DNA of 64,000 bases from Arctopsyche grandis. Its lineage: Eukaryota; Arthropoda; Insecta; Trichoptera; Hydropsychidae. The DNA is taken from assembly GCF_051622035.1 (NCBI RefSeq), contig NC_135358.1, positions 11,352,001-11,416,000 of the forward strand, given 5' to 3'. Of the stretch, positions 19,988 to 63,682 are shown piece after piece. Each line of letters opens with the position of its first letter. The first letter of the stretch is position 1. The notes below the pieces were generated by a model. The model was not told where the DNA came from. It saw only the letters and a program-made list of their open reading frames with translations, and did not search any database. The translations under genes and the position numbers were made by a program.

Positions 19988-20915
19988 AAAATTCTGTAGC
20001 AAATAAAGTACGAGTAGTTGGAGGTAGAAACGCTACACTTGGAGAAATTCCTTATCAAGTATCAATCAGATTAGGCAATAAAAATCACAATTGTGGTGGA
20101 TGTCTGATCGACAAAGAGTGGGTGCTCACTGCAGCTCACTGTCTCGGGTAAGATTTAAAGATAAAGATAATATCTCTTTTAACAACATTTCATGAATCAA
20201 TAAATAATATTATTTAAGACCTACTTCTAAATACGTGACAATGGGAACAATCGAACTAAACTCTGGTGGCATCACTACCGGTGTGTCGAAATTTATCAAG
20301 CATCCAGGATACACACAGTCCAGCCGATCAAACGATATTGGATTGTTAAAATTAGACAAAGCAGTTGAATTTGATCAATTCATTCAACCTTTAACCCTTC
20401 CTGCCGATGATATGGGAGCTGATTCAACTTTAACCTTGAGTGGATGGGGATACTTAAGTGTGGGTAAATTTAAAACGAAACATACATATGTCAATTTCGT
20501 GCTTTCAAAATTACATTCCAAATCGCTTTCGTTTCAGTATCCAAACGGATATACACCAAATAACCTTCAAGTTCTCGAAGTGAAATCGATATCTAACACT
20601 CTCTGTTCTGAGAAATGGGCACCGTATAAAATATTTCCAACAGGATTTTGCACAATAGTGCCAGCTGGAAAAGGAGTATGTAAAGTATGTATGATAATTA
20701 CGATTTTTTTTATTTAATGGCATTAAGAAAAAAAAAAGTACACAATGACAATTCAATTTTGATTTTAGGGTGATTCTGGTGGACCGCTAGCCAGTAATGG
20801 TGAAATTCATGGGATTGTATCGTTTGGTGCAGCTTGTGCTCTCGGATATCCTGATGTTTACACAAGAGTTTACTCATATAAACAATGGATACAGGATACA
20901 ATTAATCAAAATTAA
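19988..20915 (+). CDS. SP1: S1 serine protease, brachyurin-type pocket (first exon unresolved)
   Basis: Exons 19988-20147, 20219-20459, 20538-20684, 20769-20915; GT-AG, 695 nt, which needs a phase-1 first exon as in its neighbours. It encodes KVR|VVGG (activation site), LTAAHC (His57), SNDIGLLKL (Asp102) and GKGVCKGDSGGPL (Ser195), ending GYPDVYTRV. Residue 189 is Gly and 226 is Asp, the arrangement of crab collagenase (brachyurin), which gives broad trypsin/chymotrypsin-like specificity. The signal peptide exon is not clear: ATG 19840 opens MRKKRLLYIFMVILMMFAL and then stops, while ATG 19930 runs in frame into the protease without a good signal peptide. Probably an active secreted protease if a first exon exists. 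AATAAA lies near 20993. Confidence 0.85.
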
Positions 20916-22753
20916 AACATATATGTCTTCAGAAATATAATTTTATCATCTAAAAATTGTTTTTATTTATCATTCAAATATATGTACATACAAATAAACA
21001 TACTCGTGTTTATTTGACAATGGCGTCAAATTGACATTACAGAGTAATTCCAAGTCGTCACTAAAGTTTAACAAAAAAATAAAAAAGTATATGTACAACC
21101 AAATGAAAAATTAAAAAAAAATAAACATAAATATTAAACAAATGCAATACTATGTATGAATACACGTAACGATGTCAAATTAAACAATCCCACAACCAGA
21201 TAAGCATATTTTAGATTGAAAAAATACAATAGAAATCTGGTTAAGGAGCTTGAAACTCCTTGCAACAGGTGACGAAGCCATCAGATGATTGGTACGTGCC
21301 ACAGGAGAAGAAAACAAACTGCGGCATTTAATGTACCTGAGATGTATGTACATATGTATGTGTCTATGTAAGAATTTCATCTTACGTATTATTTGAACAC
21401 TTTTTCTAATATTATATGATGATAATTATTTTAAAAGCGTTGAATCTATGCATATATGTATGTACAGTCCCCTGACAAAATGGATGGACCACTAAGGTTA
21501 AATAGTAAAACAGGCTACTGAATGCAAATATGAACAAAAATTTGTGAAATTTGAGATTGAATATGCTAGTTAGGGTTCAGGTAGTGACCCAAGTTGAAAA
21601 TAAAAAAAAATGGTTCGAAGGGGATGCAAAACCTCAGATGTACTCAGATGTAGAAGAGAATATTTTTAAATTCAAAATTGGATGACCAATGAAAAATGAA
21701 ATTTACTTAAAATAATAAAGAAAATGGGGTAACCGATTCATACGTGATATCGCATCTTAAATATTAGCTTAATTACATATAAGCTGGAATTTCTGATCAT
21801 ATACATAATTTGAGCATTCATTGATTTCGTTCAAAGTTCAAAGTTAGCATTTTTATTTGAATATTTTCTATTTAGATCAACACTGTTGAAATAGTAGAAT
21901 TTTTTGTCACAACGTATGTAAATGATAATAAGTGTTATCATGTTAAAAACGTCATTTTTAAAATAAACAATTCCGAAAATTCAACTTCATTTACAATGTT
22001 TGTTAAGTAATTTATGTATGTACATTATATACAGAATGTTCAACGAAAGTTAAATTAAATTATTCATAAAGGCATAAAATAAATTTGGCGTGTTTAAAAA
22101 GTATTTCATGTATTATACATACATATATGAAATATTTTCTTAAAAACCCAGATACTAAATATTATACATATTACATATTAAATACATAGCGGTTTTAAAT
22201 AATGAAACCAATTAAAATTCCTTGTGTTATATACATATATGTTTATCTTCCAGTTGTAACATATGTACATATGTATATACTATTTGGAATATATTTCGTC
22301 TAACCCACGATAGTCGATTCATATGGTGAATTACATTCCAACTGGTCAAATATATTACAAATGAAAATACATTTCAACTATAAGTTGGTACAAGTTAAAT
22401 GGAGAAGTTAGATTTTCGTGAAAACGTCACTCGACTAGTAAATTGAGTTCGAAATTCACATTTTTGTTATGAACACATTCTTAGAGTTATCGTAATATGA
22501 TACGCATTACCTTTATTCGTAATACCTAGCAAATATTAACGCATTATTGAATTCTAAAGCATTCTTAAAAACATCAACGCTGTCAAAACTCAACTGTTAT
22601 AATAACATAACTAGCTCACATTGTTGAAAATGCATTTGCGCTTATAGAGATATAATTTCCTAGTTGAATTTTATCCGAATATAAATGAACTAGAACGCTA
22701 GTTGTAACTGCTAACTGAAAATACGCTTCCACTGTAATATACATATATACCTA
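20916..22753. other. AT-rich intergenic DNA with a possible Tc1-type end
   Basis: No gene is visible. At 21466 TACAGTCCCCTGACAAAATG resembles a Tc1-like inverted repeat next to a TA target; its partner end was not found. The rest is AT-rich and low in complexity. Confidence 0.4.
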
Positions 22754-23116
22754 CTAGCTGAACCCGGCATGCGTTGCAATGCCACAATAACGCATGTAAT
22801 TCCCGTTCCCGTTCCCATTCCCGTTCTCGTTCCCATTTGTCGGAAAAACACAGGCAGCGAAGACATTTGAAATTAATCAATTATTTGTTTATTTTGCCCT
22901 AACAATGCATGTCGCGACGCGAAAAAAATTGATATTATTGCGTTGCAATGCCACTCGTTCCCGTTTTTCCCGTTTCCGTTCCTGTTTTTGGCCGATTTTT
23001 TTTTACAGTAAGCTTCCCGGATATGCATAGAACAAATCCTGAGAGTTACATCGTAATCAGTTCAGTGGTTTAGGAGCCCATTCGAGACAGACAGAAAAAA
23101 CATTGATTTTTATAGA
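22754..23116 (-). mobile_element. Non-autonomous Helitron
   Basis: On the minus strand it runs A|TCTATAAAAATCAATG ... hairpin GCATGCG/CGCATGC-type stem, GGGTTCAGCTAG|T. The 5' TC, the 3' stem about 10 nt from CTAG, the insertion between A and T and the lack of a target duplication are the Helitron hallmarks. The interior has GAATGGGCTCCTAAACCACT and several (GGGAAC)n hexamers. No coding capacity. Confidence 0.88.
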
Positions 23117-23427
23117 TTATTACACACATTATGCCAAGCAACCCTGGTAAAGAGATCAAATGATGACTCCTGATGGATATAAATCAAAATTTTGAGATCG
23201 TAATTTGTCATGAAAACAATACTTTATCCATCTGTATTCAGTATATTATATAAGCATATGTATTTACACATGTAGATACACACATGCATATGTACATATG
23301 TATGAATGTAAAAAAGCAATAATTATTGTGACGCACGTTATCTTATTTGCTAATATGTACTTTTTTATTTAAAAAATGAAATAAAACTGTTTCGTGCAAT
23401 ATAATATATTACCCGTGATATTTCGCC

Positions 23428-23435
23428 TATATAAA
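23428..23435 (+). promoter_or_regulatory. TATA box of SP2
   Basis: TATATAAA lies 85 bp upstream of the SP2 start codon, the spacing shared by the other genes in the array. Confidence 0.6.
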
Positions 23436-62331: not shown

Positions 62332-62530
62332 TAAAGCAACAGTACCCATCTACATATCTGAAAACACGGATAAAGTACGTGAAATAAAAAAAAAGATAAT
62401 TCATATTTCTTATCACATAATATATATCTATGTACTTACATATAAATATGTATGTACTTAGTTCTTAGAAGTATCTTACATGCGAGTTAAAAATCGTAAT
62501 CTAGTGAAATATCTAATAAAAATAAGTATG

Positions 62531-62538
62531 TATATAAG
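62531..62538 (+). promoter_or_regulatory. TATA box of SP9
   Basis: TATATAAG, 81 bp upstream of the SP9 ATG. Confidence 0.6.
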
Positions 62539-62611
62539 ACGAGTGTGAATCTCACATTCATACACTTAAAGTCAGACTATCTGACTTGTTTAATCTTTAA
62601 AAATTGTGAAA

Positions 62612-63682
62612 ATGCTTCAACCATTCGTATCTTTGCTGTTGTTTCTGGGATTCTTTCAAGGTAATAATTTTCACATTTAATATTTTTCACTAAACGATTT
62701 TCTAAATTACTGACCGGTTTTATTTAATTTTTAAATATAGGAATAAAATCCCAAGATGCAAATTCAAAACAAATGGATACGAGAATTGTAGGAGGAACTT
62801 CCGCAGCATTGGGACTAATTCCTTATCAAGTATCTTTGAGATATTCCTCCATGGCACATGGTTGCGGTGGTACGATAATCGATAGAAATTGGATTATCAC
62901 AGCTGCTCATTGCATCGATGGGTATAACTAAATCAGCCATTTTATTTATTTATTAATTCTATATATTAAATATAATATTGAACACATTTGCTCTAGTATG
63001 GACATTGAGTACGTTTTCGCTGGATCGATCTATCTTAATTCCGGAGGTGTACGACTCAACGTTGCAAAAACGATTAAACATCCAGAATACAATCCAAATA
63101 CCATTTCCAACGATATAGGTTTGGTTAAGACAGTACAATCGTTCACATATGGTAAATATATAAAACCTCTTTCGCTTCCGACTTTCAATATTGGAGGCGG
63201 TTATAGTGTGAGAGTATCCGGATGGGGATTGACTTCGGTTAGTGCCATTTTTTAATAAAATATAAATTATGTTGTAGTTAAAACATTAAATGAAACTATT
63301 TTCTTGTTTCAGTATCCTGGTTCGATTCCAAACACTCTGCAATATTTGCAAGTTTTAACTTTGACTAATTCAGAATGCTCTCGGTCTCTGAAGCCGTTCG
63401 TAATTGACAGGTCACACCTTTGTACACTCCGCAATGTGGGCCAAGGAACATGTTCTGTAACTATTCCAGTTATTTTACGTACTATATTATGTACATATAT
63501 TAAACTTATCATGACTTTTTCATTCCATTACATAGGGAGATTCTGGTGGTCCTATGATGTACGCTAATCAACTTCATGGAGTTGTGTCATTTTCCAAGCT
63601 TTGCGCTAAAGGAGTTCCCGATGGTTTCGCCCGAGTATATGAATTTAATAGTTGGATTTCTTCTACCATGTCTTCTAATTAG
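62612..63682 (+). CDS. SP9: complete brachyurin-type S1 serine protease
   Basis: Exons 62612-62660, 62741-62921, 62997-63237, 63313-63456, 63536-63682; 762 nt, 253 residues. [17 protein letters not shown] is the signal peptide, a short propeptide ends DTR|IVGG, then ITAAHC (His57), [10 protein letters not shown] (Asp102) and GQGTCSGDSGGPM (Ser195), ending GVPDGFARV. Gly189 with Asp226 is the brachyurin pocket. Cys pairs 42-58, 168-182 and 191-220 are present. Predicted to be a secreted, trypsin-activated endopeptidase, digestive or extracellular. It is the only gene in the window with a full first exon and an intact triad. Confidence 0.95.

What the first reader, a model, noticed from the sequence alone, without database searches (positions are those of the whole stretch)
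19988..63682. Protease array in which loss of the triad tracks loss of the Asp226 pocket
Nine tandem S1 genes share one exon plan. The copies with His57 (SP1, SP7, SP9) have Gly189 and Asp226, and so does the SP8 remnant at 226. The open-frame copies without His57 (SP2, SP3, SP4, SP6) have Glu, Gln, Glu or Val at 226, while the disulphides, signal peptides and activation sites are kept. The catalytic and specificity sites were lost together but the scaffold was retained, which suggests a diversified family of secreted pseudo-proteases next to active parents.
Basis: partly seen in the sequence, partly recalled or inferred. Interest (0 to 1): 0.72.

Follow-up and report, generated by a model that had tools for sequence, protein, structure and literature searches.

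The report
Maintained array of inactive chymotrypsin-like proteins
A row of duplicated protease genes in what is probably an insect contains a subgroup that lost its cutting machinery once, long ago, and three of whose five members were kept in shape by selection; this is a clean example of the well-known insect 'serine protease homologs' rather than a new kind of system.

Summary
In detail: nine S1 copies on the + strand, of which SP2, SP3, SP4 and SP6 are intact five-exon genes without His57 and Asp226. The interpretation needs trimming. SP2-SP6 are one clade (99.9/100), so the two losses are one event on a long stem (dS about 1.7), not several coincidences. Gly189 is kept in 8 of 8 copies that reach it; SP2 and SP4 have conservative Glu226, the likeliest ancestral state (0.61). 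Ser214 and Pro198 went too; Ser195 survives in SP2, SP5, SP6. SP7 and SP8 are broken; SP9 is the one complete active-type gene, a sister, not a parent. A second array at C4:3.08 Mb lost His57, Ser195 and Asp189 independently. Best reading: secreted, zymogen-activated, non-catalytic binding proteins of the known insect SPH kind.

The parts
19988..20915 (+). SP1, His57/Asp102/Ser195, Gly189/Asp226; exons 19988-20147, 20219-20459, 20538-20684, 20769-20915; no convincing signal exon upstream
23513..24625 (+). SP2, intact pseudo-protease (T57, N102, S195, A214, E226); exons 23513-23558, 23623-23785, 23850-24090, 24241-24390, 24470-24625
25126..26373 (+). SP3, intact pseudo-protease (T57, N102, T195, G214, Q226); exons 25126-25171, 25373-25535, 25621-25861, 25948-26097, 26188-26373
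29216..31075 (+). SP4, intact pseudo-protease (T57, D102, T195, G214, E226); exons 29216-29255, 29475-29637, 29725-29965, 30694-30843, 30920-31075
36662..43097 (+). SP5, His-less copy (N57, N102, S195, G214, V226) with one in-frame stop in exon 1; exons about 36662-36710, 36789-36948, 37026-37263, 41285-41437, 42933-43097 (start of the second set by hand after SP6); intron 2 holds a non-LTR retrotransposon copy
50097..51312 (+). SP6, intact pseudo-protease (N57, N102, S195, G214, V226); exons 50097-50145, 50219-50372, 50447-50684, 50920-51072, 51148-51312
56841..58779 (+). SP7, active-type copy (H57, D102, S195, G189, D226) now broken: two in-frame stops, Phe for Cys191; candidate signal exon 56841-56889
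60737..61246 (+). SP8, remnant of exon 3 (weak, E 0.004) and exon 4 with Asp226
62612..63682 (+). SP9, intact active-type Gly189/Asp226 chymotrypsin; exons 62612-62660, 62741-62921, 62997-63237, 63313-63456, 63536-63682

Best explanation
SP2-SP6 are serine protease homologs (SPHs) that arose by tandem duplication from an insect-type Gly189/Asp226 chymotrypsin close to SP9. On one stem lineage the copy lost His57, Ser214 and Pro198 and changed residue 226, and kept the fold, secretion, the Arg15|Ile16 activation site, Asp194 and the disulphides; the 217-220 loop is longer than in SP1 and SP9 (SP7 and SP8 share a longer loop). The lineage then duplicated; SP2, SP3 and SP4 evolved under purifying selection, while SP5 has been disabled recently and SP6 cannot be told from neutral since its split from SP5. 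Shown: gene structures, residues, single origin, purifying selection on SP2-SP4. Inferred: the proteins are secreted as zymogens, cut by a trypsin after Arg15, undergo the Ile16-Asp194 switch, and then act as non-catalytic binding proteins whose altered 214-228 face contacts a partner (for example a protease, zymogen or surface) instead of a substrate. The tissue (gut or haemolymph) is not known.
For: Single clade SP2-SP6, SH-aLRT 99.9 / UFBoot 100, sister to SP7+SP9. Branch codon model: SP2-4 branches omega 0.25, LRT against 1 = 103; stem of SP5/6 0.18, LRT 6.6; three further data sets or topologies give inside-clade omega 0.216-0.225 with LRT 120-153. Neutral simulation over the dS of the SP2, SP3, SP4 terminal branches: about 15, 38, 24 stops expected, 0 of 4000 runs open for each. 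Intact splice sites and a TATA-like element 82-95 bases before the ATG in SP2, SP3, SP6, SP9. Arg15-Ile16, Gly193, Asp194 and six Cys kept. The seven Gly189/Asp226 paralogues modelled outside the array all have an intact triad. Nearest solved chain to SP9 is fire ant chymotrypsin 1EQ9. PMC11172050 (passages; its section 2.6) describes the same kind in Tenebrio: Asp226 chymotrypsins with related SPHs that mostly keep D or E at 226.
Against: No expression, protein or activity data. No orthologues from other species could be searched, so selection is inferred from paralogues, with dS above 2 for several pairs. A low branch omega does not prove present function: the SP7 branch has omega 0.19 (LRT against 1 = 10.7) although SP7 is now broken. 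Constraint is weaker in the His-less clade (0.295) than elsewhere (0.155). SP5 against SP6 gives omega 1.04, so not all of the clade is visibly maintained. The clade-stem omega (0.13) is not significantly below 1 (LRT 2.65). No TATA-like match was found for SP4 with the pattern used. The partner-binding mechanism is inference from what is conserved.
Confidence: 0.64

Rival explanations
1. Decaying genes: the His-less copies are pseudogenes on their way out and the change at 226 is drift in dead genes.
For: SP5 has a stop codon and retrotransposon copies beside and inside it; SP5-SP6 pairwise omega is 1.04 with dN 0.115, dS 0.111; the SP5 and SP6 tips are not distinguishable from omega 1 (LRT 0.24 and 0.30); SP7 and SP8, of the active type, are also broken, and SP7 shows that a broken copy can still carry a low branch omega (0.19).
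Against: SP2-SP4 omega 0.25 with LRT 103, repeated under other data sets; 0 of 4000 neutral runs per gene stay stop-free; splice sites intact. For SP6 alone the tip has P(no stop) 0.04 under neutrality, so recent relaxation of SP6 is not excluded.
Confidence: 0.12
2. Inhibitor decoys: the pseudo-proteases soak up dietary or microbial protease inhibitors and so protect the active enzymes.
For: Signal exons and activation sites kept, beside active-type copies. In Helicoverpa one SPH gene went up and one down on soybean inhibitors (PMC9693090, passages).
Against: Canonical inhibitors use the S1 pocket and the 214-216 strand (recalled knowledge); here 214 is Ala/Gly, 215 is Arg/Lys/Ile, 226 is changed and the 217-220 loop is longer, which should weaken such binding.
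Confidence: 0.12
3. Residual or altered catalysis: SP2 and SP6, which keep Ser195 and the oxyanion glycine, still hydrolyse something slowly or act as acyl-binding proteins.
For: Ser195 and Gly193 kept in SP2, SP5, SP6; ancestral node Ser195 0.97.
Against: His57, Asp102 (in SP2, SP6) and Ser214 are all replaced; SP3 and SP4 have Thr195.
Confidence: 0.05
4. About the correlation itself: the change at 226 is simply relaxed constraint after loss of catalysis, with no functional link between His57 and residue 226. This is compatible with the best explanation, so its odds are not exclusive of it.
For: Single stem event; Glu226 is the most likely ancestral state (0.61) with later Gln and Val, as expected for stepwise drift at a freed site.
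Against: In the separate array at C4:3.08 Mb His57, Ser195 and the pocket Asp189 were also lost, whereas of four models broken at Ser195 only, one (L022) keeps Asp189 and one (L033) has the same 189/226 pair as its intact sister L034; the other two (L020, L027) are doubtful models. A weak hint, n = 2 clades, that loss of His57 and of the pocket carboxylate go together.
Confidence: 0.55

Closest known systems
Single-domain serine protease homologs related to the Asp226 ('GGD') chymotrypsin clades of Tenebrio molitor (PMC11172050)
   Same: Signal peptide, trypsin-type cleavage site, no regulatory domain in the propeptide, substituted triad, relatives of Gly189/Asp226 chymotrypsins; related SPHs there mostly keep D or E at 226, as SP2 and SP4 do
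   Different: Here SP3 has Gln and SP5/SP6 Val at 226; the commonest Tenebrio change at the His is Gln (55 of 125), here Thr or Asn; most Tenebrio SPHs are anionic (pI 4-5), here predicted pI is 6.3-8.7 for SP2, SP3, SP4, SP6
Fire ant chymotrypsin (PDB 1EQ9)
   Same: Best solved-chain match of SP9 (E 4.8e-43) with Gly189/Asp226 in the printed alignment
   Different: An active enzyme. A profile of SP2, SP3, SP4, SP6 does not list it among its best 60 chains, which are mostly vertebrate trypsins plus crab collagenase 1AZZ
Scabies mite inactivated protease paralogs (SMIPP-S), seen as passages of PMC4930577
   Same: Expanded family of S1 paralogues with mutated triads beside few active members
   Different: PMC4930577 says most of the mutant mite proteins keep intact substrate-binding sites; here residue 226 and the 214-216 strand are altered. 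No host-complement role can be claimed here
Clip-domain SPHs (insect prophenoloxidase cofactors; recalled)
   Same: Non-catalytic S1 domain with kept activation cleavage
   Different: No clip domain here (only Trypsin found; short propeptides)

Membership tests
Insect serine protease homolog (SPH) of family S1A | S1 (Trypsin) domain over full length | tested here: met
   Pfam PF00089 E 3.5e-28 to 1.3e-36 for SP2, SP3, SP4, SP6
Insect serine protease homolog (SPH) of family S1A | One or more catalytic triad residues replaced in an otherwise open gene | tested here: met
   SP2, SP3, SP4, SP6
Insect serine protease homolog (SPH) of family S1A | No peptidase activity | not testable with these tools
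   needs recombinant protein
Insect serine protease homolog (SPH) of family S1A | Kept by selection rather than decaying (my added criterion) | tested here: met
   SP2-SP4 omega 0.25, LRT 103; not met for the recent SP5 and SP6 tips (LRT 0.24, 0.30)
Insect serine protease homolog (SPH) of family S1A | Host is an insect | tested here: inconclusive
   organism not named; inferred from the 1EQ9 match and from PMC11172050 calling this pocket characteristic of insects
Gly189/Asp226 insect chymotrypsin clade | Descent from Gly189/Asp226 chymotrypsins | tested here: met
   SP2-6 are sister to SP7+SP9; intron positions and phases shared with L001, L002, L003 on C1
Gly189/Asp226 insect chymotrypsin clade | Asp226 | tested here: not met
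   E/Q/E/V/V in SP2-SP6; derived from, not functional members of, these enzymes
Clip-domain SPH | N-terminal clip domain | tested here: not met
   only Trypsin found; short propeptides
SMIPP-like immune-evasion paralogues | Inhibition of a host defence cascade | not testable with these tools
   no assay; organism not named

The most novel reading that the evidence does not exclude
In this genome, loss of His57 and loss of the pocket carboxylate form a repeatable route to a secreted, still zymogen-activated binding protein: one array from an Asp226 chymotrypsin (window) and one from an Asp189 trypsin (C4:3.08 Mb) took it independently, while homologs broken only at Ser195 (four models, two of them doubtful) did not regularly lose it. 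The pocket carboxylate would then be selected against, not merely freed, once catalysis is gone.
Probability: 0.13. Interest if true: 0.5.

Novelty: new member of a known kind. Interest (0 to 1): 0.33.

Why it matters
It gives a tractable array in which maintained, recently disabled and active-type copies of one protease lineage sit side by side, with a second independent array in the same genome. That makes it a reasonable test bed for what a pseudo-protease keeps (activation switch, Asp194, disulphides) and what it lets go (His57, Ser214, the pocket carboxylate). The phenomenon itself is well known in insects.

Tried and rejected
Rejected: that four or five copies are independent evidence for a link between triad and pocket (tree). 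Rejected: that Gly189 marks the active copies. Rejected: that all five His-less copies are decaying. Led nowhere: a signal exon for SP1 in 15000-19990, where searches listed only unconvincing candidates; Rfam on the window, no match at gathering scores; copy number of the retrotransposon elsewhere in the genome (genome search gave no answer). No charge or glycosylation signature separating the groups was seen. In the SP5/SP6 noncoding comparison the 400-base upstream stretch was set aside because of poor alignment (88 of 335 differ); the other four stretches gave 36 differences in 517 sites, and the first of them runs about ten bases into SP5's exon 1.

Limits of the genome comparison: the 40 fetched loci were chosen by me from hits; one search lists only part of its 176 matches, and the large cluster at C13:23.03-23.18 Mb and others were not modelled. 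Some long-span models may be chimeras (L030_4638 was, and was replaced; the tree still contains it; L012, L020 and L027 are suspect). Eight of 51 models and SP8 were left out of the tree. The simulation starts from present sequences with base frequencies that I set.
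Full report
What is there. The window is a 64-kb piece of a 476-Mb genome (G000:C4:11352001-11416000). Searching it with exon translations of SP1 and SP9 finds nine S1 copies, all on the + strand. Among the listed own-genome matches the nearest ones on C4 outside the window are at about 3.1 Mb and 18.4 Mb, so the array seems complete in the window, within the sensitivity and list limits of those searches.

Gene models. SP2, SP3, SP4, SP6 and SP9 each have a signal-peptide exon and four further exons, with GT donors and AG acceptors and no stop. 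A TATA-like element lies 82-95 bases before the ATG in SP2, SP3, SP6 and SP9; the same pattern found none for SP4. SP1 has four good exons but no convincing signal exon in the 5 kb upstream; its near relative L004 appears, from the sequence printed, to have a longer leader, so an unrecognised first exon is possible. SP5 has a signal exon, one in-frame stop in exon 1 and a retrotransposon in intron 2. SP7 has two stops and Phe for Cys191; SP8 is a scrap. The mature part has introns at the same model positions and phases (2, 0, 0) in SP1-SP4 and SP9, one position off in SP5-SP6, and one to three off in SP7; L001_2023, L002 and L003 on C1 share it exactly. So the exon plan is that of this chymotrypsin family in the genome, not special to the array.

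Residues. From a home-made spliced profile alignment, in the order SP1, 2, 3, 4, 5, 6, 7, 9: residue 57 H/T/T/T/N/N/H/H; 102 D/N/N/D/N/N/D/D; 195 S/S/T/T/S/S/S/S; 189 Gly in all eight; 214 S/A/G/G/G/G/S/S; 226 D/E/Q/E/V/V/D/D, and D in SP8. Pro198 is Gly and Ala55 is Ser in SP2-SP6. Position 216 is unsure in SP2-SP6 because of their longer 217-220 loop; searches place different residues there. Ile16, Gly193, Asp194 and the six Cys are kept in SP2, SP3, SP4 and SP6.

Phylogeny. With 52 sequences (8 window copies, 43 own-genome models and 1EQ9), SP2-SP6 form one clade (99.9/100), joined to SP7+SP9 at 94.9/100. The correlation between His57 and Asp226 is therefore one event within the array. A codon-model reconstruction puts at the SP2-6 ancestor Asn57 0.75 (His 0.11), Ser195 0.97, Gly214 0.71 (Ala 0.23), Glu226 0.61 (Asp 0.23, Val 0.13). 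So the enzyme was probably dead by loss of His57 while Ser195 was intact and an acidic residue still sat at 226; Thr195, Gln226 and Val226 came later. The stem is dS about 1.7 long, so order within it cannot be resolved.

Selection. Pairwise omega is 0.355, 0.112 and 0.073 for SP2-SP3, SP2-SP4 and SP3-SP4 (dS 1.06, 2.4 and 6.1, the last saturated), but 1.04 for SP5-SP6 (dN 0.115, dS 0.111). On 12 sequences and 221 codons, the His-less clade has omega 0.295 against 0.155 for the rest, so constraint is weaker there. Split further, omega is 0.153 for the rest, 0.25 for SP2-SP4 branches (LRT against 1: 103), 0.18 for the SP5/6 stem (LRT 6.6), 0.19 for SP7 (LRT 10.7), and not distinguishable from 1 for the SP5 and SP6 tips (LRT 0.24, 0.30) or for the clade stem (0.13, LRT 2.65). 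SP7 is a warning: it is broken now, yet its branch omega is low, so omega speaks of the past. What adds weight for SP2-SP4 is that they are also open. Three variants (two without SP5 and SP7 under different topologies, one with SP2-SP4, SP1 and SP9 only) give inside-clade omega 0.216-0.225 and LRT 120-153. Under neutrality SP2, SP3 and SP4 should have collected about 15, 38 and 24 stops on their tips; 0 of 4000 simulated copies of each stayed open. For SP6 since its split from SP5 the figure is 3.3 expected stops and a 4% chance of none. Noncoding SP5/SP6 divergence is 36 of 517 sites over four stretches (a fifth, upstream, was set aside as badly aligned), somewhat below dN; a hint of faster protein change, no more.

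Other own-genome genes. The 40 fetched stretches gave 51 models. With five of these replaced by six tighter ones, and with the nine window copies, one search counted 61. Of 42 with an intact triad, 32 have Asp at 189 or 226 (10 Gly/Asp, 21 Asp/Gly, 1 Asp/Asp from a suspect model) and 10 have neither. Of the 13 of these 42 with Gly189, 10 have Asp226 (SP1, SP7, SP9 and seven outside the array) and three, L021, L034 and L036_7201, do not; L034 and L036_7201 lie elsewhere in the tree and L021 was not in it. Of 14 with a broken triad, the ten that lack His57 fall in two clades, and 0 of 10 has Asp at either place (SP2 and SP4 have Glu226). Of the four broken at Ser195 only, L022 keeps Asp189, L033 has the same pair as its intact sister L034, and L020 and L027 are doubtful models. 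Five were incomplete. The second His-less clade is an array at C4:3.08-3.11 Mb, five open copies and a fragment: residue 57 K/N/N/N/S, 195 E/E/E/E/D, 189 G/G/A/G/S, 216 Arg. In one search its sister is the Asp189 trypsin L011 (92.7/93); in the smaller tree the copies stay together (98) but L011 joins other trypsins. Inside omega is 0.75 (LRT against 1: 6.3) and stem omega 1.04 (on a topology that I fixed; inner nodes of the tree there have 42 and 68). So triad and pocket carboxylate were lost twice in this genome, from two pocket types. Two events do not make a rule, and not all S1 genes of the genome were modelled.

Mechanism. What is shown is an open, spliceable S1 gene set with signal exons, without the catalytic base, and with purifying selection on three of five copies. 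What is inferred is that activation by a trypsin after Arg15 still drives the Ile16-Asp194 rearrangement and that the activated protein binds a partner through a remodelled 214-228 face. The changed 214-216 strand and longer 217-220 loop speak against a simple inhibitor decoy, since canonical inhibitors dock there (recalled). Tissue and partner are unknown.

Comparison with what is known. Insect SPHs are abundant: PMC11172050 (passages seen, section 2.6 read) reports 125 SPHs beside 137 active peptidases in Tenebrio, most of the SPHs with a signal peptide and presumed trypsin processing, and says that most homologs related to its two chymotrypsin-like clades A3 and A4 keep D or E at 226. Fire ant chymotrypsin 1EQ9, the best solved match of SP9, has the same Asp226 (PMC2930297, passages); the profile of the His-less copies does not list 1EQ9 among its best 60 chains. 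Scabies mite inactivated paralogues are the best parallel outside insects that I know (PMC4930577, passages), but there most mutants keep the substrate-binding site. I file it as a new member of a known kind.

Noticed in passing
32269-35991 and 37351-41073: Two 3723-base copies, 100% complementary in inverted orientation 1359 bases apart, each with a 996-aa open frame (the first scanned: endonuclease and reverse transcriptase, a non-LTR retrotransposon) next to (AT)n; they bracket the first exons of SP5. Very recent insertions, an inverted duplication or an assembly effect; copy number elsewhere not obtained.
   Followed up: partly
G000:C4:3079600-3107700 (L028, L029, L030): Second array of His-less S1 genes, nearest to Asp189 trypsins, with Glu or Asp at 195, Arg216 and no Asp189; omega about 0.75 with open frames.
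   Followed up: partly
2200-8100: Proprotein convertase gene at the left end of the window: S8 and P domains by Pfam at 3112-4344, a subtilase-like motif near 2286 and cysteine-rich stretches near 7800-8018 by eye.
   Followed up: no
47986-48885: Open frame of 299 aa, stop to stop, between SP5 and SP6 with no Pfam match at E 0.001.
   Followed up: no
L040 (G000:C7:5120500-5128000): Two trypsin genes in opposite orientation about 3.3 kb apart with near-zero branch lengths between their predicted proteins.
   Followed up: no
L022 (G000:C7:10750000-10753500): S1 domain with GDGGGP (Gly195) that keeps His57 and Asp189; resembles clip-type SPHs (recalled).
   Followed up: no
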